Shown here: positions 28,611 to 48,479 of the stretch, piece by piece
How the letters are laid out: each line of letters starts with the position of its first letter
Position numbering within the stretch: position 1 is the stretch's first letter
Assembly: GCA_017537965.1 (NCBI GenBank)
Contig: JAFYJV010000022.1
Location: 24,912 to 88,911 of the forward strand
Direction of reading: 5' to 3'
Length of the DNA stretch: 64,000 bases
DNA from: Bacteroidales bacterium
Lineage (GTDB): Bacteria; Bacteroidota; Bacteroidia; Bacteroidales; F082
The notes under the pieces: model-generated
Database searches by the model: none
Seen by the model: the letters and a program-made list of their open reading frames with translations, nothing else
What the model was told of the DNA's origin: nothing
Program-made: the position numbers and the translations under genes

Positions 28611-30191
28611 ATGGAGAAATTATTGTTACTCGGAGATGAAGCCATTGCTCAGGGCTTTATCGACGCCGGAGGCAGTGCCATCAACAGTTATCCTGGCACG
28701 CCATCAACACAAATCACTGAATATGTGATGAAGTCAAAACAAGCCAAGGAACTTGGCGTTCGTGCCAACTGGTGCGCCAATGAGAAGACGGCCCTTGAGG
28801 CTTCCATCGGTGTGGCATACGCTGGCAAACGTGCCATGACCTGCATGAAACATGTCGGTCTGAATGTCTGCGGCGACCCGTTCATGAACGCTGCCATCAT
28901 CGGCACCAAGGGCGTTCTCGTGGTGGTTGCCGACGACCCCAGCATGTTCTCTTCGCAAGATGAGCAGGACAGCCGTTTCTATGGACACTGGGCCATGATC
29001 CCCATGCTGGAGCCCTCCAACCAACAGGAAGCCTACGACATGGTTCATTTCGGTTTCGAGTTGAGCGAGACACTCGGCACGCCGGTGCTTTACCGTATTC
29101 CTACCCGTCTGGCTCACAGTCGTGCCGGCGTGGTGCGCAAACCCGTCCGCAAACAGAACGAACTCACGGAACCGGCCGACGCCAGGTCGTTCGTGCTGCT
29201 TCCCGCCAATGCCAAACGCCTCTATAGGGATCTGATCGACAAGCAGCCCGCCTTCACCAAGGCCTCTGAGGAATCAGGCTATAACAAATACTTCGAGGGC
29301 GAGAACAAGAAACTTGGCATCATCACCACAGGCATAGCATACAACTACTTGATGGAGAACTTCCAAGGCGGAAAATGCCCTTATCCAGTGGTCAAGATCA
29401 CGCAATATCCGTTGCCATATAACATGATCAACAAGCTGTATGACGAAGTCGATGAGATCCTCGTTCTTGAAGACGGCCAGCCGTTTGTTGAAGAGCTGAT
29501 CAAAGGCTTCCTCGGCAAAGGCAAGAAGGTCATGGGCCGTCTGGACGAGACCATCCGTCGCGATGGCGAGCTGAACGCCGAGAAGGTGGCCAAGGCATTG
29601 GGCATGAAAGCCGATGCAGGACTTGCCATCCCCGAAGTGGTCACCAACCGTCCTCCGGCGCTCTGCCAAGGTTGCCCCCACGTGGATAGCTATAACGCCC
29701 TCAACGCGGTGATGGCCAACCATAAGGGTGGCAAGGTGTTTGGCGACATCGGCTGCTACACCTTGGGATTCAACATGGGCGCCATCCAAACCACCGTGTG
29801 CATGGGCGCTTCCATCACCATGGCCAAAGGCGCTTCTGAAGTGGGCATCTTCCCAGCTGTGGCAGTCATCGGCGACGGCACCTTCGGACATAGCGGCATG
29901 ACAGGCCTGCTCGACTGCGTCAATGAGAAAGCCAACGTGGTGGTCATGATTCTCGACAACGACATCACGGCCATGACGGGAGGTCAGCCATCATCGGCCA
30001 ACAACAAGATCCGCCAGATCTGCGAAGGTCTTGGCGTGGCTCCTGAACATATCCGCGACATCATCCCGCTGCCAAAGAACCACGAGGAGAACGTAAGGAT
30101 CATCGAGGAAGAGGTCAACTACAACGGCGTCTCCGTCATCATCCCTCACCGTACCTGCCTCGTCGAACTCAAAAAGCATCTAAAGAAGTAA
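28611..30191 (+). CDS. iorA: Indolepyruvate ferredoxin oxidoreductase, alpha subunit
   Basis: 526 residues. With IorB it oxidatively decarboxylates aryl pyruvates (from aromatic amino acids) to aryl-acetyl-CoA, passing electrons to ferredoxin. The N-terminal pyrimidine-binding domain begins LLGDEAIAQGFIDAGG; the thiamine-diphosphate region has GDIGCYTLG and the metal motif VIGDGTFGHSG...DND (about 420-455). Cys residues in LCQGCPH (about 351-357) are conserved. It ends at LVELKKHLKK and lacks the C-terminal two-cluster ferredoxin domain of archaeal IorA, so electrons must leave by another route. The iorB gene follows after 34 nt. Confidence 0.92.
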   Translation: MEKLLLLGDEAIAQGFIDAGGSAINSYPGTPSTQITEYVMKSKQAKELGVRANWCANEKTALEASIGVAYAGKRAMTCMKHVGLNVCGDPFMNAAIIGTKGVLVVVADDPSMFSSQDEQDSRFYGHWAMIPMLEPSNQQEAYDMVHFGFELSETLGTPVLYRIPTRLAHSRAGVVRKPVRKQNELTEPADARSFVLLPANAKRLYRDLIDKQPAFTKASEESGYNKYFEGENKKLGIITTGIAYNYLMENFQGGKCPYPVVKITQYPLPYNMINKLYDEVDEILVLEDGQPFVEELIKGFLGKGKKVMGRLDETIRRDGELNAEKVAKALGMKADAGLAIPEVVTNRPPALCQGCPHVDSYNALNAVMANHKGGKVFGDIGCYTLGFNMGAIQTTVCMGASITMAKGASEVGIFPAVAVIGDGTFGHSGMTGLLDCVNEKANVVVMILDNDITAMTGGQPSSANNKIRQICEGLGVAPEHIRDIIPLPKNHEENVRIIEEEVNYNGVSVIIPHRTCLVELKKHLKK

Positions 30192-30225
30192 TCTTGAAAT
30201 CTTTGAATCTTTAAATCTTGAAATC

Positions 30226-30798
30226 ATGAAAAAAGATATCGTACTCTGCGGCGTGGGCGGCGACGGCATCGTCTCCGTGGCCAAAATCATCTCGGATGCC
30301 GCATTGAATATGGGCCTTAACCTCAAACAGTCTGAAATTCACGGCATGTCGCAACGTGGCGGATCGGTTTTCTCGCACTTGAGACTGTCAAGCGACGAGA
30401 TCTTCGCCGATGTCATCCCCGAAGGCCATGCCGACATCATCCTCTCCAGCGAGCCGATGGAAGCCTTACGCTACCTGCCTTGGCTGGCCAAGGACGGATG
30501 GATCATCACCAACAACGAGCCTTTTGTCAACATCAAGAACTATCCTGACATGGAGAAGGTGAACGCGGAGTTGGGCAAGATCAAGAACGTGGTCAGCTTC
30601 AACGCCTCGGAGATTGCCAAGGCCATCAAGGCGCGTTCCAACATGGTGCTTCTGGGCGCCACAGTGCCCTATCTCGGCATCAAGTTGCAAAAAGTCGAGG
30701 AGGCCATTACCCATATCTTCGGCAACAAAGGCGCCGAAGTCGTTGAGGTGAACATGAAGGCGCTCCATGCCGGCTACGAACAGGCAACGAAACAATGA
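30226..30798 (+). CDS. iorB: Indolepyruvate ferredoxin oxidoreductase, beta subunit
   Basis: 190 residues, the gamma-type domain of 2-oxoacid oxidoreductases. Opens with DIVLCGVGGDGIVSVAKII and continues with SEIHGMSQRGGSVFSHLR (36-53), both diagnostic. It completes the IorAB enzyme. The spacer to iorA is a tandem AATCTTGAAATC repeat like the one before fabG. Its stop overlaps the M23 peptidase start (ATGA). Confidence 0.93.
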   Translation: MKKDIVLCGVGGDGIVSVAKIISDAALNMGLNLKQSEIHGMSQRGGSVFSHLRLSSDEIFADVIPEGHADIILSSEPMEALRYLPWLAKDGWIITNNEPFVNIKNYPDMEKVNAELGKIKNVVSFNASEIAKAIKARSNMVLLGATVPYLGIKLQKVEEAITHIFGNKGAEVVEVNMKALHAGYEQATKQ

Positions 30799-32570: not shown

Positions 32571-33092
32571 TTACTCTGGTTGATTGTTCTGCGCACTGGT
32601 CATCTCAATCCTTTTGAAGAACAGGTGATAGATAAAGATGAGCAGGATGGTCATCAGGAACTCGTTGAAGAATGGGTTCTGTGGCTGTTTGGAATAGAGG
32701 AACACAACCTCGGCGACGAGAATCAGCATTTGTGAGATGCTATAGATATGAAATCCGATTCGTTGAAGCTTGAACATCCTCAAGACACCTATCAGAGAGG
32801 CCACATAGAGAAGGCAGATAAGGATAAAATAGACGGGGTTGACCGAGAGTTGGACGGTCAGGTTGTCCATCATGGTTTCCATCATAGAGGTGTCAACGCC
32901 TGGCATGGTAGTTTGAAACATGGTCTCCAAGTCACCGTCCTCCAACAGCTCTTTCAAAGTGGGTAGGAAGAGATAGATGAAGAAGGAACTGAAGATCTGC
33001 AGCAAGGCGTTGAGCAACGACAGCACCAGCAGAATGGTCATTCCGACAGGCCTCTTGATCGGTGTTTGAGTGGGATCGTTCATGGCGATCAT
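32571..33092 (-). CDS. Small membrane protein, unknown
   Basis: 173 residues, not recognised. It has four hydrophobic segments: GMTILLVLSLLNALLQIFSS, FILICLLYVASLIGVL, FHIYSISQMLILVAEVVFLY and FLMTILLIFIYHLFF. The start ATG overlaps the hutH stop (ATGA); an in-frame ATG three codons later is an alternative. Similar in layout to its downstream neighbour. Confidence 0.68.
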   Translation of the reverse strand: MIAMNDPTQTPIKRPVGMTILLVLSLLNALLQIFSSFFIYLFLPTLKELLEDGDLETMFQTTMPGVDTSMMETMMDNLTVQLSVNPVYFILICLLYVASLIGVLRMFKLQRIGFHIYSISQMLILVAEVVFLYSKQPQNPFFNEFLMTILLIFIYHLFFKRIEMTSAQNNQPE

Positions 33093-34600
33093 TGGTTCTT
33101 CAATACGTCGAATGCCAACGGGTATTGCTGAATAAACTGCACGCTCTTGGCGATTTCTGTGTACATCACCTTGTCAACACGCACAAACTCCACGGATTTG
33201 CGATACTCGGCAACGAACTTCTCGATGGTCTTGGATGATTTCAGCGGGCGGCGGAACTCCAAGGCTTGTGCGGCGTTGAGCAACTCGATGGCAAGTACGC
33301 GTTCCAGGTTCTCAGCCACTCTCAAGGCCTTGGTGGCGGCGTTGGCGCCCATGCTGACGTGATCCTCTTGGCCTTGCGACGACTCGATGCTGTCAACCGA
33401 AGCAGGGGTGCAGAGCTGCTTGCTTTGGCTGACGATGCTGGCAGCGGCGTATTGTGGGATCATGAAACCAGAGTTGAGGCCGGGTTCCGCGACGAGGAAT
33501 GAAGGCAGGTCGCGCTTGCCACTGATAAGTTGGTAGATGCGGCGTTCGCTGATGTTGCCCAGTTCAGCCAAAGCGATGGCAAGGAAGTCCAGAGTGATGG
33601 CCAAAGGCTGTCCGTGGAAGTTGCCGGCAGAGATGACGAGGTCCTCGTCGGGGAAGATGGTCGGGTTGTCGGTGACGGCGTTGATCTCTTCGCTGAACAC
33701 GGAGGCCACGTAGTCGATGGCGTCTTTGGAGGCACCGTGTACCTGTGGCATGCAACGGAAGGAGTAGGGATCCTGGACGTGTTTCTTCTCCCGGGCGATG
33801 AGTTGGCTACCCTTGGTGAACTCGCGCACACGCTTGGCGGTGACGATTTGTCCGTTGTGGTGGCGGATCTGATGCACCTGATCGAAGAAAGGCTCGATGC
33901 GGCCGTCGAAGGCTTCCAAGGAGACGCAGCCGATGAGGTCGGCGAGATAGCTCAGGCGGAAGGCTTTCAGCAACACGTAGGTGCCGTAGCTGCTCATGAA
34001 CTGGGTGCCGTTGAGCAGGGCTAAGCCTTCTTTCGACTGGAGGGTGATAGGCTCCCAGCCGAACTTGTCGAGGACTTTCTGGGTAGGGACGATCTTGCCT
34101 TTGTAATGGACTTCGCCCAAGCCCAACAAGGGAAGCATCAGGTTGGCCAGGGGAGCGAGGTCGCCGGAGGCGCCGAGCGATCCCTGGTTGTAAACCACTG
34201 GCAATACGCCGTTGTTGAAGAAGTCGATCAAACGCTGTACGGTGACCACCTGAACGCCGGAATTGCCGTAGCTGAGGCTTTGCACCTTTAATAACAGCAT
34301 GATACGGATGATCTCCTCAGGCACCATCTCACCTGTGCCGCAGGCGTGCGACATGACAAGGTTCTTCTGCAAGGTGCTCAGGTCTTCTTTCGAGATGCTG
34401 TGGTCGCACAAAGAGCCGAATCCGGTGGTGACGCCGTAGATGGGCTTTTCGGGATTCTCCATCTTCTTGTCGAGGTAGTCGCGGCAATGTTGGATGCGTT
34501 GGATGGCGTTGTCTGACAAAGCCAATTTGTAACCATTGGTGATTATTTCATTTACCTGTTTGAAGGTCAGTTCTTTGGATGAAATGTAATGGGTTTTCAT
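33089..34600 (-). CDS. hutH: Histidine ammonia-lyase (aromatic amino acid lyase family)
   Basis: 503 residues. Forms urocanate and ammonia from histidine, using an MIO cofactor made from Ala144-Ser145-Gly146 (GSLGASGDLAPLAN). Catalytic Tyr55 lies in IYGVTTGFG, and the lid and core motifs SHACGTGE, HVQDPYSFR and SMGANAA are present. The whole sequence follows the HutH pattern of Bacteroidota rather than the flavobacterial tyrosine ammonia-lyase pattern. No hutU, hutI or ftcD lies nearby; instead it sits 13 nt after hisS, so two histidine-using enzymes share a transcript. Tyrosine or phenylalanine as substrate is not excluded. Confidence 0.88.
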   Translation of the reverse strand: MKTHYISSKELTFKQVNEIITNGYKLALSDNAIQRIQHCRDYLDKKMENPEKPIYGVTTGFGSLCDHSISKEDLSTLQKNLVMSHACGTGEMVPEEIIRIMLLLKVQSLSYGNSGVQVVTVQRLIDFFNNGVLPVVYNQGSLGASGDLAPLANLMLPLLGLGEVHYKGKIVPTQKVLDKFGWEPITLQSKEGLALLNGTQFMSSYGTYVLLKAFRLSYLADLIGCVSLEAFDGRIEPFFDQVHQIRHHNGQIVTAKRVREFTKGSQLIAREKKHVQDPYSFRCMPQVHGASKDAIDYVASVFSEEINAVTDNPTIFPDEDLVISAGNFHGQPLAITLDFLAIALAELGNISERRIYQLISGKRDLPSFLVAEPGLNSGFMIPQYAAASIVSQSKQLCTPASVDSIESSQGQEDHVSMGANAATKALRVAENLERVLAIELLNAAQALEFRRPLKSSKTIEKFVAEYRKSVEFVRVDKVMYTEIAKSVQFIQQYPLAFDVLKNQ

Positions 34601-37447: not shown

Positions 37448-40400
37448 TTATTCTACGATGACTTTCTTCACGCTGATGCCTTGTTCCGATTGAATCATGA
37501 TCATGTAAAGGCCATTCCCGAATGGAGCTAGGTCCAGACTGAGGCGTTCGTCTTTCATGATAGAGCAGTATATGGTTTGTCCGAGGCTGTTGAGGATGCG
37601 GATTTCACTGTCCTTGGCGGCGTTGACCGTGATGTTGCCATGGGTCGGGTTGGGATAGACCTCCATGCCACGGCTTTCTTCGCCAATACCAGTGACTAGC
37701 ACTGCGAGGATCTCGGAATAGCATTCGATGTCGTTGCCATAGTTGGCTCCGATCATATAGTAATATTCGCCTGGGAGCACATACTCATCGGCATATTCGT
37801 AATGGTAGTTAAAGGGTACATTCACCTGCGAAGCAATGATTTCCAGATGGTCGGGATCAGTACCACGGTAGATGTAGTAGCGGTTTAGGCTCATGTTGAC
37901 GCTTGCATCTTTCTCCCAGATCAGGCGCGTGCCGAATTCATCGTCATTCCAGTAATAGAAAGCCTGGAAGTTCTTGGGTGGGATGCAGGTGCTGATTTCT
38001 ACGCAAGCAGTTTCTGAAGCAGGTGATTCTACGCCTTGGAACACAGCGGTCACGGTAAAACAATGGTTGCCGTTTTCGAGGGTGGTAGAGGTGTATTGCG
38101 TCTCGGTGAGATTGGATGCTGCCAATGTATTGTTGTGATAGACATTGTAATAGTCGGCTTGTGAAACGGGTTCCCAAGTGAGTGTTACGATGTTGTCGGC
38201 ATCAGGGACAAGGTTGGCTGTAAGTCCGACAGGTTGGGTTATGACTTGCACGGTGGTCTCGGCGGTCGCAGTTTCGCCGTTGCCACTTACTGTGATGGTA
38301 TAAGTTGTTGTGGTCAATGGAGTGGCCATGGTTGTTGCTGCGTGTGGGTTGCTCAGTCCCGCTATCGGTGTCCATGAGTAGGTGAGGTTGCTTCCTCCAG
38401 TGACGGTGGCAGTAAGTGTCGTGCTGGATCCCGAGGGGATGACAGCGGGATTTGCATTGGCAGTGACGCTAAGTGGGGCGGTAACGGTTGCTGCGGAGGC
38501 ATTTGACTTCGGCGATTCGATGCCTTGATACACAGTGACGATGCGATAGGAATAAGATCCTGGGTTGAGGTTGCTGTCGGTGTAACTGGTCTCCGTGAGG
38601 TTCTGGGCAATCAAGACACTGTTGCGATACACTTTATAGGAATCGGCAGGGTTGGCGGCATCCCATTGCAGCTGGATGCTGTTGCCCGTTGCTGTGGCGG
38701 TCACGTTGTTCGGAGGACAGACTACGGTGATGGTGCACGAATCAGCTGAGCTGTGGGATCCACTAACGACGTTGCAAGTGTAGGTGGTGGTCGTTGTAGG
38801 GGTTGCTATGGGCGATTGGACATTGCTTTGACTTAGGCTTTCGGAGGGGCTCCAGCTATAGGTGAAGTACCAGTTTCCTCCTGTGGCTTGGGCGTTCAGC
38901 GTGGCGGAAGCACCCTTGGCGATGATGTTCGAACTGGCGGTAACGTTGACCTCGACAGGTCCTTCATCGCCTCCAGAAACGATATTGACAGTACCAATAT
39001 AGGTGATCTTGTTGTAGCCGAAGACCGTGAGGGTGGCTTGGGCTATTTGGGTGGGCGTTTCGAATTCGATGGTGGCAGTGCCATTGGCGATGACGGCCGA
39101 ACCCATAATCTCTCCGTTGAGAGTGAGGGTGGCCCTGGCGCCGTCGCCATTGGTTGCGTTGACCACAAAGCTGGTGGCGCCGATTGGAAGTGCTGGTGCA
39201 TGGCTGATACCCATGTCTGCAGGGACATCGTTGCGGAGGGTCAGCGTGGGGTCGCCAAAGAGGATCCAGCACATGTAGGTGCCCATGGCCGCACTGTTGT
39301 TGGCGCCATATTGGTCGATGATCTTCATGTTACCATCGAAGGAGGTGCCTCCGAGGGTTCGTTTGATGTGGTTTTGATAGCTCTCCACCAGGACATCGAC
39401 CATCTCGTCCTGACCATACATCGGAGGCACCCAGGGCTGGGAGATGTACGAGAACATGCCGCCGATGGCTCCAGTGGGTTGGTTGACGTCATTGCTATTA
39501 TTGGCTCTCAGCCATGTTTCTCCAAAACAAGGTTGACTGTGGTCGTACTTGCCGTTCAGACATGCCACCGACCAAACGATGGGCCATTTGTTTACGTTGG
39601 TCAAAGCGTTGACGTGGCTGTTGTTATAGCTGAAGACACCCCAACCGGTTTCGTTCCCGTGGTTGCAATAGTTGATGATGCTGACACCGTTGTTGATGTG
39701 TTGGCTCAGGGTAGTTGCACTGGAGCTGGTACCGCTAACATTCTGATAGTCTCTGTAAACTTCGGTATAATGGTATCCAAGCAGGTCGGTCTTGATGTTG
39801 TCGATATGCTGCCAGTCGTCCTCATTATAGTGTCCGCCATTTCCAGCAACAGTGGCGACACCTGTGCCGTAGGTGAGCCAAGTGTCGTTGGCATTCAGAT
39901 CTCTTTCGTAGGTGATCACCTTGTTGACCTGGGTGGTGACATGGCTGGTGTTTTCAGCGGAGAAACGGCCAACGATGACATCGTTGTAAAAGTCGTTGCC
40001 AGCCACTTGACCGTACCAGTTGTCGGAACGTCCGCTATAGCCTCCGTTATAGGCATAATAACCTTGGATCTGGGCATTGTCGCCTACCAATAGGATGTGG
40101 GCAATGCTGTTGTCGTTGTCGTATTGGGTTTGAATGTAGTTTTTGAGGGATTCGCTGTTGGCACCAGCGACGCTCGTACCCACCATAGTGGTAGGGATGC
40201 CGATTTGTTTTTTCCAGTTGACGTAGGGCTCCATGGCCGACATGAAGGCGTCGTGGCAGATGATGAGCAACTTGCCGGTCTCGTTGACGGGGGAGTATCT
40301 ATTTAGGGCCGCTTGATAGTTGATGAAGCGGCTGTTGTACATGGCACTGAATTCAGGATCCAACTTTATGGTGCTTGATTTGCGGTTGAAGGTATTCTCG

Positions 40401-40993
40401 CCATTGGCACGGTCGCTATACATCTCGACAGTGAGGTCGTAGTAAACACGTAATGTCTTGCTTATGGGGTTATAGGCGAAGGGATGGATCACCATGTTCT
40501 GGCCACGGAAATCGCGTAAAATATAGGGATCGTACAAGCCAACTTGCTCAGAGGGAAAGAAGGCGTCGGTGGAATAGGCGGTTCCAAAGGTGTAGGGCAC
40601 ATCATCTGGATCAATCTGGCGGCTGAAATCTCCTTTGGAAGGGGCGACTTCCATTGGATAATCAACATGATGTTCATTGACGACTCGGATGGCATAGTGC
40701 TGTTGGTCTCCAATAATGGTGGGGATTGCGATTATAGGGAGGTTGGGTTCTCCTGCTTCGGCCGTGCTGACGGCTTTGGGCATGGAGATGAGATTGGAAG
40801 CACCTCGTGGGGTGTTGACTTCGTAGGTATAGAAACCAGGCACTTGGAGATGAATGGTGATGTTGGATTCTGAGGACGAGATCAGAGAGGTTTGGAAGCC
40901 GGAAGGCGCATTGCTGGTGATAGCGTTCCACGACTGGCTTATGCCAGTTAAGGCTGCCAATACCATGAGAGCGGTAAACAGAGTCTTTTTCAT
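37448..40993 (-). CDS. Gingipain-like C25 cysteine protease with PKD/Fn3-type repeats and T9SS tail
   Basis: 1181 residues from ATG 40993. Signal peptide to about residue 19. Residues ~20-215 form a gingipain-type propeptide region, then a C25 catalytic domain with His445 (NYCNHGNETGW) and Cys478 (WSVACLNGKYD), matching the Kgp-like pattern. After an Ig-like module, residues ~680-1010 alternate PKD-like (TYTCNVVSGS, TYTITVSGNG) and Fn3-like (YKVYRNSVLIAQNLTETSY) units. The C-terminus is a T9SS type A sorting domain (VYPNPTHGNITV...GLYMIMI...KKVIVE), so it should be exported by T9SS and surface-attached or released. It lacks the cleaved-adhesin module of its two neighbours and has its own promoter. 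Confidence 0.93.
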   Translation of the reverse strand: MKKTLFTALMVLAALTGISQSWNAITSNAPSGFQTSLISSSESNITIHLQVPGFYTYEVNTPRGASNLISMPKAVSTAEAGEPNLPIIAIPTIIGDQQHYAIRVVNEHHVDYPMEVAPSKGDFSRQIDPDDVPYTFGTAYSTDAFFPSEQVGLYDPYILRDFRGQNMVIHPFAYNPISKTLRVYYDLTVEMYSDRANGENTFNRKSSTIKLDPEFSAMYNSRFINYQAALNRYSPVNETGKLLIICHDAFMSAMEPYVNWKKQIGIPTTMVGTSVAGANSESLKNYIQTQYDNDNSIAHILLVGDNAQIQGYYAYNGGYSGRSDNWYGQVAGNDFYNDVIVGRFSAENTSHVTTQVNKVITYERDLNANDTWLTYGTGVATVAGNGGHYNEDDWQHIDNIKTDLLGYHYTEVYRDYQNVSGTSSSATTLSQHINNGVSIINYCNHGNETGWGVFSYNNSHVNALTNVNKWPIVWSVACLNGKYDHSQPCFGETWLRANNSNDVNQPTGAIGGMFSYISQPWVPPMYGQDEMVDVLVESYQNHIKRTLGGTSFDGNMKIIDQYGANNSAAMGTYMCWILFGDPTLTLRNDVPADMGISHAPALPIGATSFVVNATNGDGARATLTLNGEIMGSAVIANGTATIEFETPTQIAQATLTVFGYNKITYIGTVNIVSGGDEGPVEVNVTASSNIIAKGASATLNAQATGGNWYFTYSWSPSESLSQSNVQSPIATPTTTTTYTCNVVSGSHSSADSCTITVVCPPNNVTATATGNSIQLQWDAANPADSYKVYRNSVLIAQNLTETSYTDSNLNPGSYSYRIVTVYQGIESPKSNASAATVTAPLSVTANANPAVIPSGSSTTLTATVTGGSNLTYSWTPIAGLSNPHAATTMATPLTTTTYTITVSGNGETATAETTVQVITQPVGLTANLVPDADNIVTLTWEPVSQADYYNVYHNNTLAASNLTETQYTSTTLENGNHCFTVTAVFQGVESPASETACVEISTCIPPKNFQAFYYWNDDEFGTRLIWEKDASVNMSLNRYYIYRGTDPDHLEIIASQVNVPFNYHYEYADEYVLPGEYYYMIGANYGNDIECYSEILAVLVTGIGEESRGMEVYPNPTHGNITVNAAKDSEIRILNSLGQTIYCSIMKDERLSLDLAPFGNGLYMIMIQSEQGISVKKVIVE

Positions 40994-41018
40994 GATGATG
41001 AGTTGTTGTTTAAAGCCG

Positions 41019-41026
41019 CAAAGATA
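41019..41026 (-). promoter_or_regulatory. -7 element TATCTTTG for the third C25 gene
   Basis: Minus strand, 25 nt before the start codon and directly after the terminator of the preceding unit. Confidence 0.6.
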
Positions 41027-41042
41027 GGAATATTTCATGAAT

Positions 41043-41070
41043 AAAAAAAGGGCCGCAATAGCGGCCCTTT
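41043..41070 (-). terminator. Intrinsic terminator after the C25 pair
   Basis: On the minus strand AAAGGGCCGC-TATT-GCGGCCCTTT is followed by a T-run. It separates the two-gene C25 unit (48.3-41.1 kb) from the third C25 gene. Confidence 0.92.
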
Positions 41071-41095
41071 AAAAGAGGATCGAAAAGCCAATGGA

Positions 41096-44000
41096 TTATT
41101 TCACAATGACTTTCTGGATGTCGGTGTTGACGCCATCGTTCAGGTGGAGGAGGTAGATGCCCTTTGCAAGGCTGCTCAAGTTGAGCATCTGCTCACCGTT
41201 GGCATGTCCATTCATCACCTGCTGACCAAAGCTGTTGTACAACGAATAGGTGTATTCGCCAACAAATTCAATGTGTAAGTTGCTTTCCGTCGGGTTCGGG
41301 TACACGCGGAAACTCTCGCTGTTTTCGCCGATTCCGAGGTAGCTGAGCACGTTGACGGTCACAAATGAAGGCTGTGATACATTGCCGTCTTCATCTTTGG
41401 CAATGACGCAGTATGTGTAAACGCCGTGTTCAACGGTCTCGCTGAAGCCGTTCTCAATTAGGTCAGTGGCGATTTCTTCACCATTGCGGAAGACACTGTA
41501 GGAAATAGCTCTTTCCATAGCGGTCCAGCTAATGATGACTTCATTGTCGATCACTTCAGCAACAAGGTTTTCAACGCCGTTGTTGGCCGTACTGATGCTG
41601 CTGGCTGGCATTTGGATGTTGTCAATCCATGCGCAGTCGCTACCGCTACTGACGCTATAGTCTTTTTCGTACTTCCATTTGAGGGTGTGTTGACCAGTAG
41701 TAATGGGGAAACTGACCTGACTCCAATCAAGGCTGCCTGACCATGAACCCATCTCGATGCCGTCAATGTAGAAGTAAAGCTTGTCATAGTTGGATTCGGA
41801 GGAAACCTTTCTAAAGAAGCTGATCTCATCGTCAGTAGGGATGTTGACGGTCACTTTCATTGTAGTGCTGCTTGAGTGGCTGATGGCACCTGACTTGGCG
41901 CAATAGCTGCCTTCATAGGCGTTGCTGGAGTCAATGGTCCAGGACTGACCCTCAAAGCTCCAGTCGAATGCGGAGAAATTGCCGGTCTCGAAACCTTCCA
42001 TGATATTGCCAACGCTGATGACGGTGGTGCCACTAACTGAATAGAAGTCGGCGTTGAGGAGATAAGAAACCTCAAAGCAGCTTCCTTCCTCTACGTTTTC
42101 AGCGATTGTGATCGGAACTTCGAAGACGATGGATTCCTGAGCGGGGATGGATTCAAACTCAAAAGAGGCGTTGGGTATGGTGAGCTCAGGAGCGCAGCTG
42201 AAGAGATTAAACATTCCAGCAGGAGCATCGCAGTGACCGTTGTTAGCGAATTGCAACTTGACGATGCCTTCGTGTTGGCCGAGTAAGTCGCCTTCCAAAA
42301 CCATTTGCACAAACTCAACGGTAGGAGCGTTGACATTGACGTTGAAGTTGGAATTCCAAACATCGTCGCCCGCTGTCATGTCAAGTGCGAAGTTGATCTT
42401 GGTTCCGTCGGGAATATTGTTGGAGATCTTGAAACGGAAGATGTCATCGATGGAAATGGTGGCTCCTTCAGCCAAGCTAGCGATGGTAGCTGTGTTGTTG
42501 AGGATCTCGGTGATATATTCGGATTCAGTGCTCAAAGTAACTGTCACGTCGTTGACGGTTTCCACACCGACGTTTTTCACTTGGACATTGACAGAGCCTT
42601 CTTCACCAAAGTTGAATGATCCGGTCTCCGTGTTGACTTGGAAGTCGTCAAGCACGAGGTATGGACCTTCGGCAGGAACAATCTCAATTTCTCCCCTATA
42701 GGTGACCTTATTGAAGCCGAGGATCGTGAGATCGGCCACACCTACGTTGCTTAGTCCAGGGAAGCTGAGGGTGGCGGTGCCATCCACGATTTTCGATGAA
42801 GCAAGCATCTCGCCGTTTATGGAGAGGGTGGCGATGCCGTATTCAACATCGGCATTGACGATGAGTTCAGACATGCCAAGCATCAACACGGATGGATTGG
42901 TCGAGACGTTCATCTCGGTCGGGATGGCTGTTCTCAACATCATTGATGGGTCACCGAAGAGAAGCCATGAGTTGAATGTCTGATAAGCGTCATTGGGCGC
43001 CATGTCAAGAACATACATGCTTCCGTTCAATGAAGCACCGCCGAAAGTGTGGTTGAACTGGTCAACACTGCGCCATCCTGTCAAGATGTCAACCATCTCG
43101 TCCTGGCCGTACATTGGCGGGATCCATGGTTGTGAAACGAAGGAGAACATGCCACCGACGGCACCTGTAGGAGCACCAGTAGCATTGTTCTTGGCGCGAA
43201 GCCATGACTCAGCGAAGCATGTGCCAACGTCGAACTTGCCATTCAAGCAAGCCACTGACCAAACAATAGGCAACTTGTAGTCATTGGTCAAAGCAGCGAC
43301 ATTGCTGGTGCTGTAGTTGGCCACACCCCAGCTGGTCTCTGAACCATGGTTGCAGTAGTTGATGATGCTGATACCTTCGTTGATGGTACCGCTGATGGTC
43401 GTGGTGCTAGCGTCACCACCGCTGCCACCGTGATGCTCTGTAATAGTCGTATAGGTGTAGTGCAAAAGGGTATCACGGATGCGGTCGATGTGCTGATAGT
43501 CATCTTCGCCATAGTGGCCGCTACCGGCACCGTAATAACCGATACCCATGCCTTTGTCGCCCCAAGTGGCATCCCCAGTGACATCACGTTCAAAGTAGAT
43601 GATCTTGCTGACTTGCAAATCAGCATCTGATGCATTCGACACAGAGAGACGGCCGACTAACACTTCCAGATAGTCATCATTGCCTTCCAGTTTTCCGATG
43701 TAGTTATCGGAAAACACTGTGCCACCGGAACCAGAACCCATGTTTTTAGGTGTGAGATCATTGTATTCGCCAACGATGAGTACATACTCCAGGTTGTGGG
43801 CGGGATCGTTATAGAAGTTGCTAACGTAGTTCTTGACGTTTTCGATGTTATTACCACCGGCAGTAGAGAGGCTTACCAATGTGGTTGGACGACCAGACTG
43901 GTTTTTCCACTCCACCAAGGGCTGTAAATTGCTCATGTAAGGATCTGCGCAGATGATAAGCAGTTCACCGAAATCCTCGTCAAAGGTGTACTTGGCGCCT

Positions 44001-44662
44001 GTCTCACCGAAATTGATGAAACGACGTGCATACTGAGCCTTGTTTTCCGGATCGATCTTGATAGTGTTGCTTCTGCGGTTGACCTTCTGGTTCGCACCGT
44101 TGTCGCTCACCTTCTTCATTTCGATGGTCAGGTTGTCATAGACACGCAGAACATGGGTCTGAGGGTTGTAGGCAAAGGGGCGGACCATGATGTTTTGACC
44201 ACGGAAGTCGCGCAAAATGTAAGGTGCTTCCAAATAGGCTTGAGTAGCTGGCCAGAATGCATCTTGCTTGTACATTTCGCCATAGGTGAAAGGCACATCG
44301 GCAAGGTTGACCTGACGGCTGATATTGCCTTTTGATGGTGCGATCTCAATGTCAGGATAATCGGTGTATTGTGCGTCAATGACGCTGACGGTCATTTCTG
44401 CCCTGTCGCCAATGATGACTGGGACGGGTAGCATCGGCAGGTCTGGGGCACCGGCTTCGAGAATGGAAGCCATTTTGGGGACATTGACGACGAACTGGTC
44501 GCCTTGAGGAGTCTGAACCTTATTGGTGGAAAAACCATTGAGATCGACTTGAACGACGGTGCGATCCTCCGAACTGAAGATCAGCTTTGTGGAGGGAGCT
44601 TTCTGTGCAAACCCACTTCCCACAAGGAAGAGGGCTAACAGGAGCATTAAGTTTTTCTTCAT
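41096..44662 (-). CDS. Gingipain-like C25 cysteine protease with cleaved-adhesin-like domain and T9SS tail
   Basis: 1188 residues. Signal peptide ends at GSGFAQ (residue 20). Propeptide region to about 215, then the C25 domain with His439 (NYCNHGSETSW) and Cys472 (WSVACLNGKFD). CARDB-like modules follow (about 665-875), then a MAM/cleaved-adhesin-like domain (about 905-1035, with FFRKVSSESNYDKLYFYIDG and SGSDCAWIDNIQ), an Fn3-like unit, and a T9SS type A domain (RVYPNPTESNLHIEF...GIYLLHL...QKVIVK). The adhesin module resembles the haemagglutinin domains of P. gingivalis gingipains. The gene lies 29 nt after the other adhesin-bearing C25 gene. Confidence 0.93.
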   Translation of the reverse strand: MKKNLMLLLALFLVGSGFAQKAPSTKLIFSSEDRTVVQVDLNGFSTNKVQTPQGDQFVVNVPKMASILEAGAPDLPMLPVPVIIGDRAEMTVSVIDAQYTDYPDIEIAPSKGNISRQVNLADVPFTYGEMYKQDAFWPATQAYLEAPYILRDFRGQNIMVRPFAYNPQTHVLRVYDNLTIEMKKVSDNGANQKVNRRSNTIKIDPENKAQYARRFINFGETGAKYTFDEDFGELLIICADPYMSNLQPLVEWKNQSGRPTTLVSLSTAGGNNIENVKNYVSNFYNDPAHNLEYVLIVGEYNDLTPKNMGSGSGGTVFSDNYIGKLEGNDDYLEVLVGRLSVSNASDADLQVSKIIYFERDVTGDATWGDKGMGIGYYGAGSGHYGEDDYQHIDRIRDTLLHYTYTTITEHHGGSGGDASTTTISGTINEGISIINYCNHGSETSWGVANYSTSNVAALTNDYKLPIVWSVACLNGKFDVGTCFAESWLRAKNNATGAPTGAVGGMFSFVSQPWIPPMYGQDEMVDILTGWRSVDQFNHTFGGASLNGSMYVLDMAPNDAYQTFNSWLLFGDPSMMLRTAIPTEMNVSTNPSVLMLGMSELIVNADVEYGIATLSINGEMLASSKIVDGTATLSFPGLSNVGVADLTILGFNKVTYRGEIEIVPAEGPYLVLDDFQVNTETGSFNFGEEGSVNVQVKNVGVETVNDVTVTLSTESEYITEILNNTATIASLAEGATISIDDIFRFKISNNIPDGTKINFALDMTAGDDVWNSNFNVNVNAPTVEFVQMVLEGDLLGQHEGIVKLQFANNGHCDAPAGMFNLFSCAPELTIPNASFEFESIPAQESIVFEVPITIAENVEEGSCFEVSYLLNADFYSVSGTTVISVGNIMEGFETGNFSAFDWSFEGQSWTIDSSNAYEGSYCAKSGAISHSSSTTMKVTVNIPTDDEISFFRKVSSESNYDKLYFYIDGIEMGSWSGSLDWSQVSFPITTGQHTLKWKYEKDYSVSSGSDCAWIDNIQMPASSISTANNGVENLVAEVIDNEVIISWTAMERAISYSVFRNGEEIATDLIENGFSETVEHGVYTYCVIAKDEDGNVSQPSFVTVNVLSYLGIGENSESFRVYPNPTESNLHIEFVGEYTYSLYNSFGQQVMNGHANGEQMLNLSSLAKGIYLLHLNDGVNTDIQKVIVK

Positions 44663-44691
44663 TTTACTTGCTTGGTTTTATTTCAGTACTA

Positions 44692-47600
44692 TTATTCAAC
44701 AGTAATTTTTTGGATGGTAGTATGAGTGCCAGTGGTGATACGGAGCACATAAATGCCCTTGGCAAAACCGTTGACATTGAGTTGTTGCTGTCCGGAGGCG
44801 CTGCCAGAGAGGACTTTCTGACCCATATTGTTGAACAGGTCATATTGGAAGTCGGCATTGACGCGGAGGTTGAGCGTGCTTTGGACAGGGTTGGGGTAAA
44901 CGATGATGTCGATGATCTCTTCTTCGACGTCGTCATACACAACATCCACTGTAACAAAGGAAGGTGAGGAGGCGTGGCCTTCATCATCCTTGGCGATGAC
45001 GCAGTAGTTATAGATGCCTTCGGGCAGGGTCTCGGTGAAGGTGTTTTCGCTTGTAATGGCAATTTCTTCGCCATCGCGCTTCACTGTGAAGGAAGCAGCT
45101 TCGGGCATTTCGTCCCAAGTCAAGGTGACATCAAAGTCTTGAACGGTGGCTTCCAGTCCAGTGACAGGACTCAAGGCCAAGGTGACATGGGTGGGTGGGA
45201 AGGTGATGTTGTCAATCCAAGCGCAGTCGCTGCCGCTACTCACGGAATAGTCTTTTTGATATGACCATTTGAAGGTATGAGTGCCAACACTGATAGGATA
45301 GGTCTGTAAGCTCCAAGCTTGATCACCAGACCAGTTGGCTTTCTCAATATTGTCAATGTAGAAGAACAGTTTGTCGTAGCTGCTCTCTGAAGACACTTTC
45401 CTATAGAAGGAGACTTCTCCATCGGCAAGGACGTCAACCGTCAAGATGAGGTCGCTGGATTGGCTGTGGCTGATCGTGCCCGACTTGGCGCAATAAGTGC
45501 CGTCGTAAGCGTCAGTATTGACGATGGTCCATGCAGCGGTGCCGCCGCTTGTCCATGGGAACATGTTGAAATCGCCAGACTCAAAGCTTTCAGCGATGTA
45601 ACCGACGGTAACGATATAGGTGCCGTTGGCGCTATAGTGGCCGCTGGTGAGGAGGTAGCCGAGCTCGTAGGTGGAACCGTTTTCCACGTCTTCAGCAACG
45701 GCGATGTTGACCTCAAAGATTTTGGTGCGGCCAGCAGGGAACGTGTCGATAACGATGGAGTTGTCGAGCACAGTGACGTCCTGTGAGCTGCTGAAGAGTT
45801 CGAAAACAGCATTGTAGGCATCGGCTCCGCCGTTATTGGTGATCTCAAATGTGACGACACTGTTCTCGCCAGGAACGAGTTCGGTATTGACGATGCTTTC
45901 AACATTGAACTCGGGAGCTAAGGCAGTCACGTTGAACTTGCTTTCCCAAGTGTCCTCGCCGTCGGTGCAGGTGACAAAGAACTGGATCTTTTCGTTGTTG
46001 GGGACATTCACTGCGACGTCGAAGCTGAAAGTGTCTTCGATGACATAGCTATCGTCGGCAGGAAGGGTCTCGATGACGGCTTCGTTGTTGACGAAGGTGA
46101 TGTATTCCGACTCCGTGCTGAGGGTGACGGTCACATTGTTAGCGGTTTCTGAACCAACGTTCTTAATGGTGACGTTCATGGGTACGTGAGAGCCATTGGT
46201 CACAGGATGTTGCACTTCATAGTTGTCGTAAGCAAGGTAGGCACCGTCCAAAGCGGCAGCGGGAATGACAGTGCGATACGGCACATGTTGCGGATGGGTC
46301 ACGCAGATGTGGACATCGCCTCCACTGGTAATGGGGTTGATGGCAATGGCGGTGGTGCCAGTCTCATCAATCATGCCAGCGCCATAAATCACGCCGTCCA
46401 TGGTGATGGCAGCGTATGAACCGGGAGCAGCCGTGATCTCATAGGAATCCACGCCGATGGGCAGGGTGGGCAGGTGGCTCACGTCATTCGGAGTGGGAGC
46501 GACACGATAAGGCAGGATGGAACCGTCGCCCAAGGTGTGGTAGGCTTGCCAGTCATACAGGGTGCTGATATGGAGGGTGTAGCCGAGAGCTTGAGCAGCG
46601 TTGCTGGCCAAGTTGCCAATAAATCTGATGGCGTCAACGGTGTTGTAAGCGTCATTGTCCCAGATGGCATCATAGCAGCCCATGGTGGTGATGGAGATAT
46701 CAGGCATTTGGCCGTTGGCTTGGCTGGTGGCGCCTACACCGAAGTAGTAGTCGTTGAGCCAGTAGGTGGAGGGGCAGGAACCGATGTAGGCGTAAGCGGC
46801 CTTGTTCTCGGCGCGAACCATGGCTTCACCGAAGCAGGTGCTGCTGATACCCCAGTCGGCGGCCTCGCAGCAGTTACCCATGGCGAGGAAGTACTTGTGT
46901 TCGTTGGTCAGGTTGTTGACATCGCTGACAGTGAAACTCGGTCCAGCCCAGCTGGTGTTGCTGCCGTGGGCGGTGTAGTTCACGAAACCGACGCCAGTGT
47001 TCAGGTTGTTATAGCATCCAGTATAGGTGCCATGGCTGTATTCATACACGTTGTTGAAGCCGTGTTCGGTGTTGTAGTAGTAGTTGGTTGCGTACCAAAT
47101 GGTGGGACGACCCACAGTGACACCCCAACCGCTGTCTTCACCGGCGATGAGCAGCACGTTGCTGAGGTAGCTCGGGTCGGGCATGGTGAGTTGCTCGTAT
47201 TCGAGGGCTTTGTTCAGCATGGAGGTCATCTGAGCAACGTTTTCAGCGGGGAAACGGCTATGGAACATGTCGGAGAACTCGTCGCCGTCAACACTCGAGT
47301 AGTTGAGGTCGGTGACGCAGCTGGTAGCACTGCCAGTGCCTGATTCAGGAACCATATTCTTGTCGCCCATGATCATGAGGAAGGTGGGAGCGTCCTCATT
47401 GTACTTCTGCTGGATGAACGAGCGGATGGCCGAAGAGTTGGTGCCGATCTGGTCGGTGTAGTTCACATCGACATAGAAGCCCTTTTCAGTCTTCCAGTTA
47501 ACCCATTCTTGAATGGTGGATTCAAATGCGCGGTTTGTGATGACCAGCATCTTGACGGGGTTCTGCCAAAGATCCGGGTGATCGTCGTAAACGTCACGGA

Positions 47601-48306
47601 GTTGCTTTTCGTTAAACATTGCCTTGTACACACCCGAGAAATAAGGGCTGAACGTCTTGGCAAATTCATTGTAAGCAACGGTCTTGTCGTATTCACCGAA
47701 ATTCACCTCGACTTCGATGTTGTTGTAAACACGGATGAGGTTGTTGACTGCATCATACTGCACTGGGTTGATGGTCAAAGCGCCAACTTGGATGCCACGC
47801 ATGGTGCCTTTGATTTCGAACAGGGCAATGGGATGCTCCACGAATCCGGCGGTGGTGTAGGCCTTGGCGTTGTATTCAAAGGGGAGATCACCAGGCTTTT
47901 GGTCCTTGCGAAGAGGAGTCTGCTGGGGATAGAGACTATGGATGCCATAGTCAGCAAGGTTGTAAACAGTGGTGCTATAGTTCTTCACCTTAACATTGAC
48001 GTTGTTGGCACCGAACGGCACAGCAATCAGTTTGTTGGCGGCAGGCAATGTCGGGTCGCCAATGTTGCCTGAAGGATAGGCACCATCCATGGTGATGTTG
48101 GAAAACAATCCTTTTTCGGTGGAGACTTCTTCAGCAACGATGCTGCCGAATGAGAAAGTTGCAGTGAAACCATTGTCAGAGACATTCTCACACTGCTGAG
48201 CGGATTTGACACCGTTCAAGTCAATCCGGCCTTGTGCCGTGGCTTGAGCGCTGAACAGCATTCCCATGAACAGGAATGCGAAGAAAAGTAAGCTTACTTT
48301 TTTCAT
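44692..48306 (-). CDS. Gingipain-like C25 cysteine protease (Rgp-like active site) with cleaved-adhesin-like domain and T9SS tail
   Basis: 1204 residues. Signal peptide to about residue 25 (AQATAQ). Propeptide to about 230. C25 domain with His447 (NYTAHGSNTSWAGP) and the tandem Cys479-Cys480 (LAMGNCCEAADW), close to the GNCC site of RgpB and unlike its two neighbours. It then carries CARDB-like modules (about 700-900), a cleaved-adhesin-like domain (about 925-1055, with SSESSYDKLFFYID and SGSDCAWIDNI), an Fn3-like unit and a T9SS type A domain (VYPNPVQSTLNLRV...GIYVLRI...QKITVE). First gene of the C25 pair. An Arg-type specificity is plausible but not shown. Confidence 0.94.
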   Translation of the reverse strand: MKKVSLLFFAFLFMGMLFSAQATAQGRIDLNGVKSAQQCENVSDNGFTATFSFGSIVAEEVSTEKGLFSNITMDGAYPSGNIGDPTLPAANKLIAVPFGANNVNVKVKNYSTTVYNLADYGIHSLYPQQTPLRKDQKPGDLPFEYNAKAYTTAGFVEHPIALFEIKGTMRGIQVGALTINPVQYDAVNNLIRVYNNIEVEVNFGEYDKTVAYNEFAKTFSPYFSGVYKAMFNEKQLRDVYDDHPDLWQNPVKMLVITNRAFESTIQEWVNWKTEKGFYVDVNYTDQIGTNSSAIRSFIQQKYNEDAPTFLMIMGDKNMVPESGTGSATSCVTDLNYSSVDGDEFSDMFHSRFPAENVAQMTSMLNKALEYEQLTMPDPSYLSNVLLIAGEDSGWGVTVGRPTIWYATNYYYNTEHGFNNVYEYSHGTYTGCYNNLNTGVGFVNYTAHGSNTSWAGPSFTVSDVNNLTNEHKYFLAMGNCCEAADWGISSTCFGEAMVRAENKAAYAYIGSCPSTYWLNDYYFGVGATSQANGQMPDISITTMGCYDAIWDNDAYNTVDAIRFIGNLASNAAQALGYTLHISTLYDWQAYHTLGDGSILPYRVAPTPNDVSHLPTLPIGVDSYEITAAPGSYAAITMDGVIYGAGMIDETGTTAIAINPITSGGDVHICVTHPQHVPYRTVIPAAALDGAYLAYDNYEVQHPVTNGSHVPMNVTIKNVGSETANNVTVTLSTESEYITFVNNEAVIETLPADDSYVIEDTFSFDVAVNVPNNEKIQFFVTCTDGEDTWESKFNVTALAPEFNVESIVNTELVPGENSVVTFEITNNGGADAYNAVFELFSSSQDVTVLDNSIVIDTFPAGRTKIFEVNIAVAEDVENGSTYELGYLLTSGHYSANGTYIVTVGYIAESFESGDFNMFPWTSGGTAAWTIVNTDAYDGTYCAKSGTISHSQSSDLILTVDVLADGEVSFYRKVSSESSYDKLFFYIDNIEKANWSGDQAWSLQTYPISVGTHTFKWSYQKDYSVSSGSDCAWIDNITFPPTHVTLALSPVTGLEATVQDFDVTLTWDEMPEAASFTVKRDGEEIAITSENTFTETLPEGIYNYCVIAKDDEGHASSPSFVTVDVVYDDVEEEIIDIIVYPNPVQSTLNLRVNADFQYDLFNNMGQKVLSGSASGQQQLNVNGFAKGIYVLRITTGTHTTIQKITVE

Positions 48307-48412: not shown

Positions 48413-48479
48413 CCAAAAATACACATTTTTTTCGAAATAGCACCTATTAAAGGGAGGAAAATCGATTTTTTAACATATT

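What the first reader, a model, noticed from the sequence alone, without database searches (positions are those of the whole stretch)
37448..48306. Three tandem gingipain-like C25 proteases with different active-site types in one 11-kb block
Seen: three ~1,190-residue proteins with signal peptides, C25 catalytic His/Cys and T9SS type A tails. The first-transcribed copy has the GNCC active-site context known from RgpB; the other two have VACLNGK contexts like Kgp. Two of them carry cleaved-adhesin-like domains and share one transcript (29-nt gap, terminator at 41043-41070); the third has its own promoter and PKD/Fn3-type repeats instead. Known: in Porphyromonas, Rgp and Kgp mature each other and shed adhesin domains. 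Inference: this organism has a co-regulated, complementary-specificity surface protease set, possibly with mutual processing. That would be notable outside the oral Porphyromonas group.
Basis: partly seen in the sequence, partly recalled or inferred. Interest (0 to 1): 0.85.

Follow-up and report, generated by a model that had tools for sequence, protein, structure and literature searches.

The report
Gingipain protease trio in gut bacteria
A gut bacterium related to strains from plant-eating animals carries, side by side, relatives of the lysine- and arginine-cutting surface proteases known as virulence factors of a gum-disease germ, and this pairing turns out to be common in its genus and found in many related families.

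Summary
The three genes are real: each has a C25 prodomain, C25 catalytic domain, Ig-like domain and T9SS tail, in a genome with Sov, PorU and 92 T9SS-tail matches. S1-pocket residues and the prodomain residue that plugs S1 agree: Lys plug in 134 of 135 Kgp-type rows (one truncated), Arg in 72 of 72 Rgp-type rows. Complementary specificity is thus well supported, though unassayed. It is not rare: the Kgp-type gene lies upstream of the Rgp-type gene on the same strand in 63 of 65 same-genus loci examined, the other two ending at contig edges, and same-strand pairs within 1.5 kb occur under 14 family labels of the order. P. gingivalis Kgp and RgpB fall inside order-wide clades. Propeptide junctions suggest mutual activation (50 of 63 loci strictly reciprocal), but controls did not tie the Lys junction to the presence of Kgp. 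Co-transcription is not conserved. 'Cleaved adhesin' holds only as a MAM-like fold.

The parts
44692..48306 (-). Kgp-type gene (W_K), 1204 aa, first transcribed; GNCC active site
47596..48228 (-). W_K prodomain region, residues 27-237, ending in Arg237 before DVYDDH
47905..47907 (-). W_K Lys134, aligned with the plug Lys of the Kgp prodomain (5mun; role recalled)
46498..47595 (-). W_K catalytic domain; His447, Cys480; Thr445 and Asp519 aligned with Kgp T442 and D516
45187..45591 (-). W_K MAM/CBM-like jelly-roll domain (residues 906-1040)
41096..44662 (-). Rgp-type gene B (W_B), 1188 aa; VACLNG active site
44315..44317 (-). W_B Arg116, aligned with the RgpB prodomain plug Arg126
43991..43993 (-). 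W_B Lys224, residue before the predicted mature start YTFDED (Arg229 in RgpB)
43499..43501 (-). W_B Asp388, S1 Asp (= RgpB D163); catalytic His439 and Cys472 lie further on
41594..41998 (-). W_B jelly-roll domain (residues 889-1023), 56% identical to that of W_K
37448..41038 (-). Rgp-type gene A (W_A), 1196 aa as an ORF; likely start ATG at 40991-40993; Fn3/Ig-like tail
40619..40621 (-). W_A Arg140, plug residue
40298..40300 (-). W_A Arg247, residue before the predicted mature start YSPVNE
41047..41070 (-). intrinsic terminator between B and A
41019..41026 (-). TATCTTTG, promoter -7-like box (TAnnTTTG, consensus recalled) for A
48414..48421 (-). TATTTTTG, promoter -7-like box 115 nt upstream of W_K

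Best explanation
The block encodes one Lys-specific (Kgp-type) and two Arg-specific (Rgp-type) C25 gingipain proteases, made as zymogens, exported by the type IX secretion system and fixed to or shed from the cell surface. Together they form a two-specificity, trypsin-like protein-digesting set of an uncultured Bacteroidales of the genus that holds Candidatus Limimorpha. Each zymogen is blocked by a prodomain residue matching its own specificity (Lys in Kgp-type, Arg in Rgp-type). The Kgp-Rgp neighbourhood was present in every genus locus that could be judged and recurs across the order, which fits an old arrangement of which P. gingivalis has scattered members. Shown: family, specificity-determining residues, tails, T9SS genes, neighbourhood, tree. 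Inferred: actual cleavage specificity, surface location, use for protein nutrition, and the age of the pairing.
For: Domains; PDB matches. S1 columns: T442 and D516 in 38 of 38 Kgp-type, D163 and W284 in 29 of 29 B-type and 8 of 8 A-type proteins loci plus the window, and in all rows that reach those columns among 64 K, 69 B and 29 A genus rows (one K row is a fragment, one A row is gapped at W284). Plug: Lys in 134 of 135 and Arg in 72 of 72 rows, PDB rows included, the one miss being truncated. Tree: PDB Kgp inside the Kgp clade (SH-aLRT 100), PDB RgpB inside the Rgp clade (99) (quick method, midpoint root). Kgp-type gene upstream of B on the same strand in 63 of 65 loci, the other two cut by contig ends. 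T9SS: Sov/SprA, two PorU, 92 tail matches at E<=0.001.
Against: No activity has been measured. Rows were sorted into types partly by the S1 residues, so only the plug and the tree are independent of them. Three divergent Rgp-type control proteins (L158, L160, L161) lack the Arg plug. Ecology is inferred from titles of related MAGs. Outside the genus pairing is not universal: among 40 rank-ordered loci (six of them from the genus) 13 are paired, 16 unpaired, 11 cannot be judged, so it could have arisen more than once.
Confidence: 0.82

Rival explanations
1. Interlocked activation: each zymogen keeps one site of its own specificity (the plug) and one of its partner's (the junction), so Kgp-type cannot finish maturing without Rgp-type and B-type Rgp cannot finish without Kgp-type. 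The genes stay together for this reason.
For: In the genus, Arg lies within 6 residues before the predicted mature start in 62 of 63 Kgp-type proteins and Lys in 63 of 69 B-type; 50 of 63 loci are strictly reciprocal. In RgpB both sites are Arg (PMC4357240, passages). K and R make up about 5% and 4% of propeptide residues.
Against: A-type junctions are Arg in 17 and Lys in 12 of 29. Lys junctions also occur where no Kgp-type gene was found: 11 of 29 class-level control proteins (one of the 29, L235 of G944, does come from a Kgp-bearing genome; its junction is Arg) and 2 of the 10 order-level control proteins that have a prodomain. Pair test on the tree: 4 independent pairs, median p 1. Arg residues further upstream (RRFINF) could serve instead.
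Confidence: 0.35
2. Plain division of labour: the junction only needs some basic residue, cut by whichever trypsin-like protease is present (C25 paralogues, host trypsin), and the genes stay neighbours because Lys- and Arg-cutting together digest proteins best.
For: Lys and Arg interchange at least 12 times on the genus tree while a basic residue is kept in all 98 genus Rgp-type rows; the genome has 10 C25 genes; Rgp-type without Kgp-type is common outside the order (44 of 45 genomes).
Against: Does not explain the strong bias of Kgp-type to Arg and of B-type to Lys in the genus, unless by descent.
Confidence: 0.45
3. The set serves mainly to process the cell's own surface proteins (as gingipains do for fimbriae) rather than to digest dietary or host protein.
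For: 92 T9SS tail matches and Cleaved_Adhesin proteins elsewhere in the genome; gingipains process fimbrial subunits (PMC10202324, passages).
Against: Several secreted copies, with further Kgp-type genes on C17 and C10, suit bulk digestion better; not tested.
Confidence: 0.2

Closest known systems
Gingipain K (Kgp) of Porphyromonas gingivalis
   Same: Prodomain, catalytic domain, GNCC site, S1 Thr/Asp, Lys at the plug column; 47% identity in the catalytic domain
   Different: Tail has CARDB-like domains and one MAM-like jelly roll and no Cleaved_Adhesin Pfam match, where Kgp has K1-K3 cleaved-adhesin domains; the gene is next to Rgp-type genes
Gingipain R (RgpB, RgpA) of P. gingivalis
   Same: Prodomain, catalytic domain, Asp163 and Trp284, Arg plug; 34-35% identity
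   Different: B-type has Lys where RgpB has Arg229 at the junction; it lies beside a Kgp-type gene, whereas the P. gingivalis locus tags PGN_1466 (rgpB), PGN_1728 (kgp) and PGN_1970 (rgpA) are far apart (PMC8861167, passages)
PorU, the T9SS sortase (C25)
   Same: C25 fold
   Different: The trio scores at most 48.5 bits against a cut-off of 420; the genome has two separate PorU genes

Membership tests
Peptidase family C25 | Pfam Peptidase_C25 over cut-off with catalytic His and Cys | tested here: met
   184, 167 and 190 bits against 23; His/Cys aligned
Gingipain K | groups with Kgp; S1 Thr442 and Asp516 (numbers and roles recalled); Lys at the prodomain plug | tested here: met
   W_K only:
Gingipain K | cleavage after Lys | not testable with these tools
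   no assay
Gingipain R | groups with RgpB; Asp163 and Trp284; Arg at the prodomain plug | tested here: met
   W_A and W_B:
Gingipain R | cleavage after Arg | not testable with these tools
   no assay
RgpB-style self-processing zymogen | Arg at both processing sites (126 and 229) | tested here: not met
   W_B has Arg116 but Lys224 at the junction; W_A has Arg at both
T9SS type A cargo | Por_Secre_tail over cut-off and T9SS genes in the genome | tested here: met
   tails 45-47 bits, cut-off 27; Sov and PorU. PorK-N and PorV were not searched; signal peptides judged by eye
Cleaved_Adhesin (PF07675) | Pfam match | tested here: not met
   no match in the tails of the trio at E 10 nor in any of 30 jelly-roll relatives; 11 matches lie elsewhere in the genome
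MAM/CBM/cleaved-adhesin jelly-roll fold | fold match of the predicted domain | tested here: met
Operon of all three | one transcript | tested here: inconclusive
   terminator and promoter-like box between B and A; neither in the K-B gap; no RNA data

The most novel reading that the evidence does not exclude
Kgp and Rgp began as an old neighbouring gene pair of Bacteroidales with interlocked, reciprocal zymogen activation: the Lys-cutter's prodomain must be cut after Arg and the Arg-cutter's after Lys, so that neither becomes active on its own. P. gingivalis would then be a late, rearranged user of a commensal gut system, with an Rgp that has freed itself by an Arg junction.
Probability: 0.3. 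Interest if true: 0.82.

Novelty: new variant of a known kind. Interest (0 to 1): 0.6.

Why it matters
Within Porphyromonas, gingipain genes have been called unique to P. gulae and P. gingivalis (PMC4700951), and Lys-gingipains exclusively associated with P. gingivalis (PMC10394638); passages of both were seen. Here Kgp-type and Rgp-type enzymes sit close together throughout a gut genus and across many families of the order, so the best-known virulence proteases of periodontitis look like members of a widespread, mostly non-oral protein-digesting set. That gives natural outgroups for asking how gingipain specificity, latency and adhesin tails arose, and for testing whether mutual activation is ancestral.

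Tried and rejected
Rejected: that the trio are PorU sortases. Rejected as Pfam membership: Cleaved_Adhesin. Weakened: the idea that a Lys junction in Rgp-type proteins depends on a Kgp partner. It looked good with the order-level control alone (of 16 proteins, 6 have no prodomain, 2 are too divergent, and the other 8 have 6 Arg and 2 Lys; two of the Arg ones are from G080, which had weak Kgp-query hits at E 3.7e-31), but failed with the class-level control (11 Lys, 10 Arg, 8 neither of 29) and in the pair test. Rejected: co-transcription as the conserved feature. A Foldseek search with the whole 514-residue tail gave low TM-scores to multi-domain Ig-type proteins, so the jelly roll was predicted alone. 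A search in the family of G273 was meant to find Porphyromonas; its best Kgp-query match was 3.0e-73 at 38% identity and no genome was recognised as P. gingivalis, so the scattered gene order there rests on locus tags in PMC8861167. Papers on gingipain zymogens and the Kgp structure were not held: Kgp residue numbers T442, H444, C477, W513, D516, the Kgp N-terminus after Arg228 and the plug Lys129 are recalled. PMC4357240 names the RgpB histidine His221; I used column 211 (recalled).

Limits of counts: one search reports 197 of 393 genomes at E<=1e-30 for the Kgp-type query and 161 of 393 for the Rgp-type; both match lists are cut off and weak hits may be other C25 proteins. Of the 96 genomes with a B-type-query hit among the 99 I examined 65: the window, four fetched, 40 (in ranking order) and 20 (partly picked from further down), one region a genome. 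regions were picked partly because a pair was likely; follow the ranking of the Kgp-query hits. One search gave 17 of 20 picked loci as paired; a stricter recount that demands the Rgp Asp163 gives 16, because in L099 another C25 gene lies between, and this is the number used. Rows typed 'other' or '?' (27 of 222) were partly left out of later type counts. L160, L161 (too divergent) and L235 (Kgp-bearing genome) were dropped. The tree is a quick search of chosen rows with some long branches; the tree is FastTree.
Full report
WHAT IS THERE. Three minus-strand genes, in transcription order W_K (44692-48306), W_B (41096-44662) and W_A (37448-41038, probable start 40993), encode C25 proteases with prodomain, catalytic domain, Ig-like domain, an extra tail and a T9SS sorting domain. 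Signal peptides are evident by eye. Among the neighbours are an S41 peptidase upstream, and a beta-CASP/RMMBL metallo-hydrolase and an aromatic amino acid lyase downstream.

LABELS ARE SWAPPED. phmmer against PDB sequences puts W_K with Kgp (4rbm, E 8e-134; prodomain with 5mun, E 6.6e-51), and W_B and W_A with RgpB (1cvr, E 1.5e-77 and 8.3e-84). Catalytic-domain identities: W_K 47% to Kgp and 27% to RgpB; W_A and W_B 34-35% to RgpB and 24-27% to Kgp. The GNCC context is Kgp's; VACVNG is RgpB's.

SPECIFICITY. The RgpB S1 residues Asp163 and Trp284 (roles: PMC4357240, passages) are kept in W_A and W_B; Kgp Thr442 and Asp516 (roles recalled) are kept in W_K. The columns are invariant in relatives: 38 of 38 K, 29 of 29 B, 8 of 8 A, window included. 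PMC4357240 describes how prodomain Arg126 of RgpB occupies S1 and is the first processing site. The aligned residue is Arg in 72 of 72 Rgp-type rows and Lys in 134 of 135 Kgp-type rows, PDB rows included, the missing one being a truncated sequence. This residue was not used to sort the rows, so it is a separate sign that the two specificities differ as predicted. In the 39 control Rgp-type proteins that have a prodomain it is Arg in 36; L158, L160 and L161, all on long branches, differ.

HOW COMMON IN THE GENUS. The own genome holds 10 C25 genes, two of them full PorU; two more, on C17 and C10, fall in the Kgp clade. A scan of genome contigs with W_K gave 43 loci, many from MAGs whose titles name rumen, abomasum, omasum, deer or horse faeces. 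In the genus sample 96 of 99 genomes have a hit to the W_B query. I examined 65 loci: the Kgp-type gene lies upstream on the same strand in 63; the other two end at contig edges. The gap is 125 nt or less in 39 of the 63; 23 have 814-1068 nt in which the longest ORF (176-269 aa) runs the opposite way, and one has 2451 nt; the one such ORF that I tested, from L207, is a TerB/DnaJ protein. A downstream A-type gene was seen in 29 of 65. The genus is taken to be the one holding Candidatus Limimorpha because contig G491:C37 has the same length, 247333, as the Candidatus Limimorpha caballi contig of L029 (inference).

BEYOND THE GENUS. Among 40 rank-ordered loci (six from the genus), 13 have a same-strand Kgp-Rgp pair within 1.5 kb, 16 do not, 11 cannot be judged; among 20 picked loci 16 do, 2 do not, 2 cannot be judged. 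The 29 paired loci fall under 14 family labels; the Kgp-type gene comes first in 27, Rgp first in 1, and 1 is an alternating array. The tree (134 rows, quick method) gives a Kgp clade of 66 rows (SH-aLRT 100) with P. gingivalis Kgp inside, and an Rgp clade of 59 rows (99) with RgpB inside; the A and B types of the genus are sister clades. P. gingivalis Kgp joins a 19-row set that holds the window's genus, but with support of only 87. Outside the order, 45 genomes of the 395-genome class sample (own genome not counted) have an Rgp-type hit at E<=1e-40, and only one of these 45 has a clear Kgp-type gene (E 2.6e-85); ten weaker hits (1.8e-26 to 4.1e-31) lie on the Rgp genes themselves.

ACTIVATION. 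In the genus the six residues before the predicted mature start hold Arg in 62 of 63 Kgp-type proteins (five of them also Lys; one has Lys only) and Lys in 63 of 69 B-type (three also Arg; six Arg only); A-type has Arg in 17 and Lys in 12 of 29. 50 of 63 loci are strictly reciprocal. In RgpB both sites are Arg. This suggests that partners cut each other's junction. Against it: Lys junctions also occur in Rgp-only controls (11 of 29 class-level; 2 of 10 order-level with a prodomain), the label changes at least 12 times within the genus, and a tree-based pair test finds no link with Kgp presence (4 pairs, median p 1; too few to reach significance). Outside the genus junctions of Kgp-type proteins are mixed and often lack a basic residue in these six positions. 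I therefore give full interlock 0.3-0.35.

TRANSCRIPTION. No terminator was found, and no TAnnTTTG box seen, in the 29-nt K-B gap; a strong terminator follows B and a TATCTTTG box lies between it and the probable start of A. In many relatives the K-B gap has its own box, and in some a terminator. Nearness, not co-transcription, is conserved.

IN PRINT. Ten searches of the open library showed no paper on a Kgp-Rgp tandem or on Kgp-type enzymes in gut Bacteroidales in what they listed; three listings were cut (15 of 25, 10 of 19, 15 of 115). I read passages of nine papers and no whole text. C25 or gingipain-like genes in sediments (PMC6752024), cockroach Bacteroidales (PMC10266427) and Cloacimonadota (PMC8542988) are reported. 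Most subscription papers and all preprints are outside that library.

VERDICT.

Noticed in passing
G000:C38:11572-18234 (loci L011, L012): Two full-length PorU-like genes in tandem (1145 and 1016 bits against a cut-off of 420).
   Followed up: no
L150, L151, L152, L154, L155, L156: Rgp-type C25 proteins of about 525 aa without any prodomain, in genera g29 and g61.
   Followed up: partly
23 of 63 genus loci, e.g. L207: Between the Kgp-type and Rgp-type genes the longest ORF runs in the opposite orientation; the L207 copy is a TerB/DnaJ protein.
   Followed up: partly
L065 (G003): Alternating array Kgp-Rgp-Kgp-Rgp on one strand.
   Followed up: no
L015:14637-18001: The Rgp-type gene beside the Kgp-type gene is split into two overlapping ORFs in this MAG; pieces not joined.
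   Followed up: no
G000:C10:79-3081: An ORF of 1930 aa near a contig end with four Cleaved_Adhesin matches.
   Followed up: no
window 28611-30798 and 33089-34600: Two genes with 2-oxoacid:ferredoxin oxidoreductase domains and an aromatic amino acid lyase (HutH-like by recall), in keeping with amino acid fermentation.
   Followed up: no
L070:1942-6351, L077:1113-5609: C25 proteins upstream of the Kgp-type gene with His/Cys but neither S1 type (Thr and Asn at the Trp513 and Asp516 columns).
   Followed up: no
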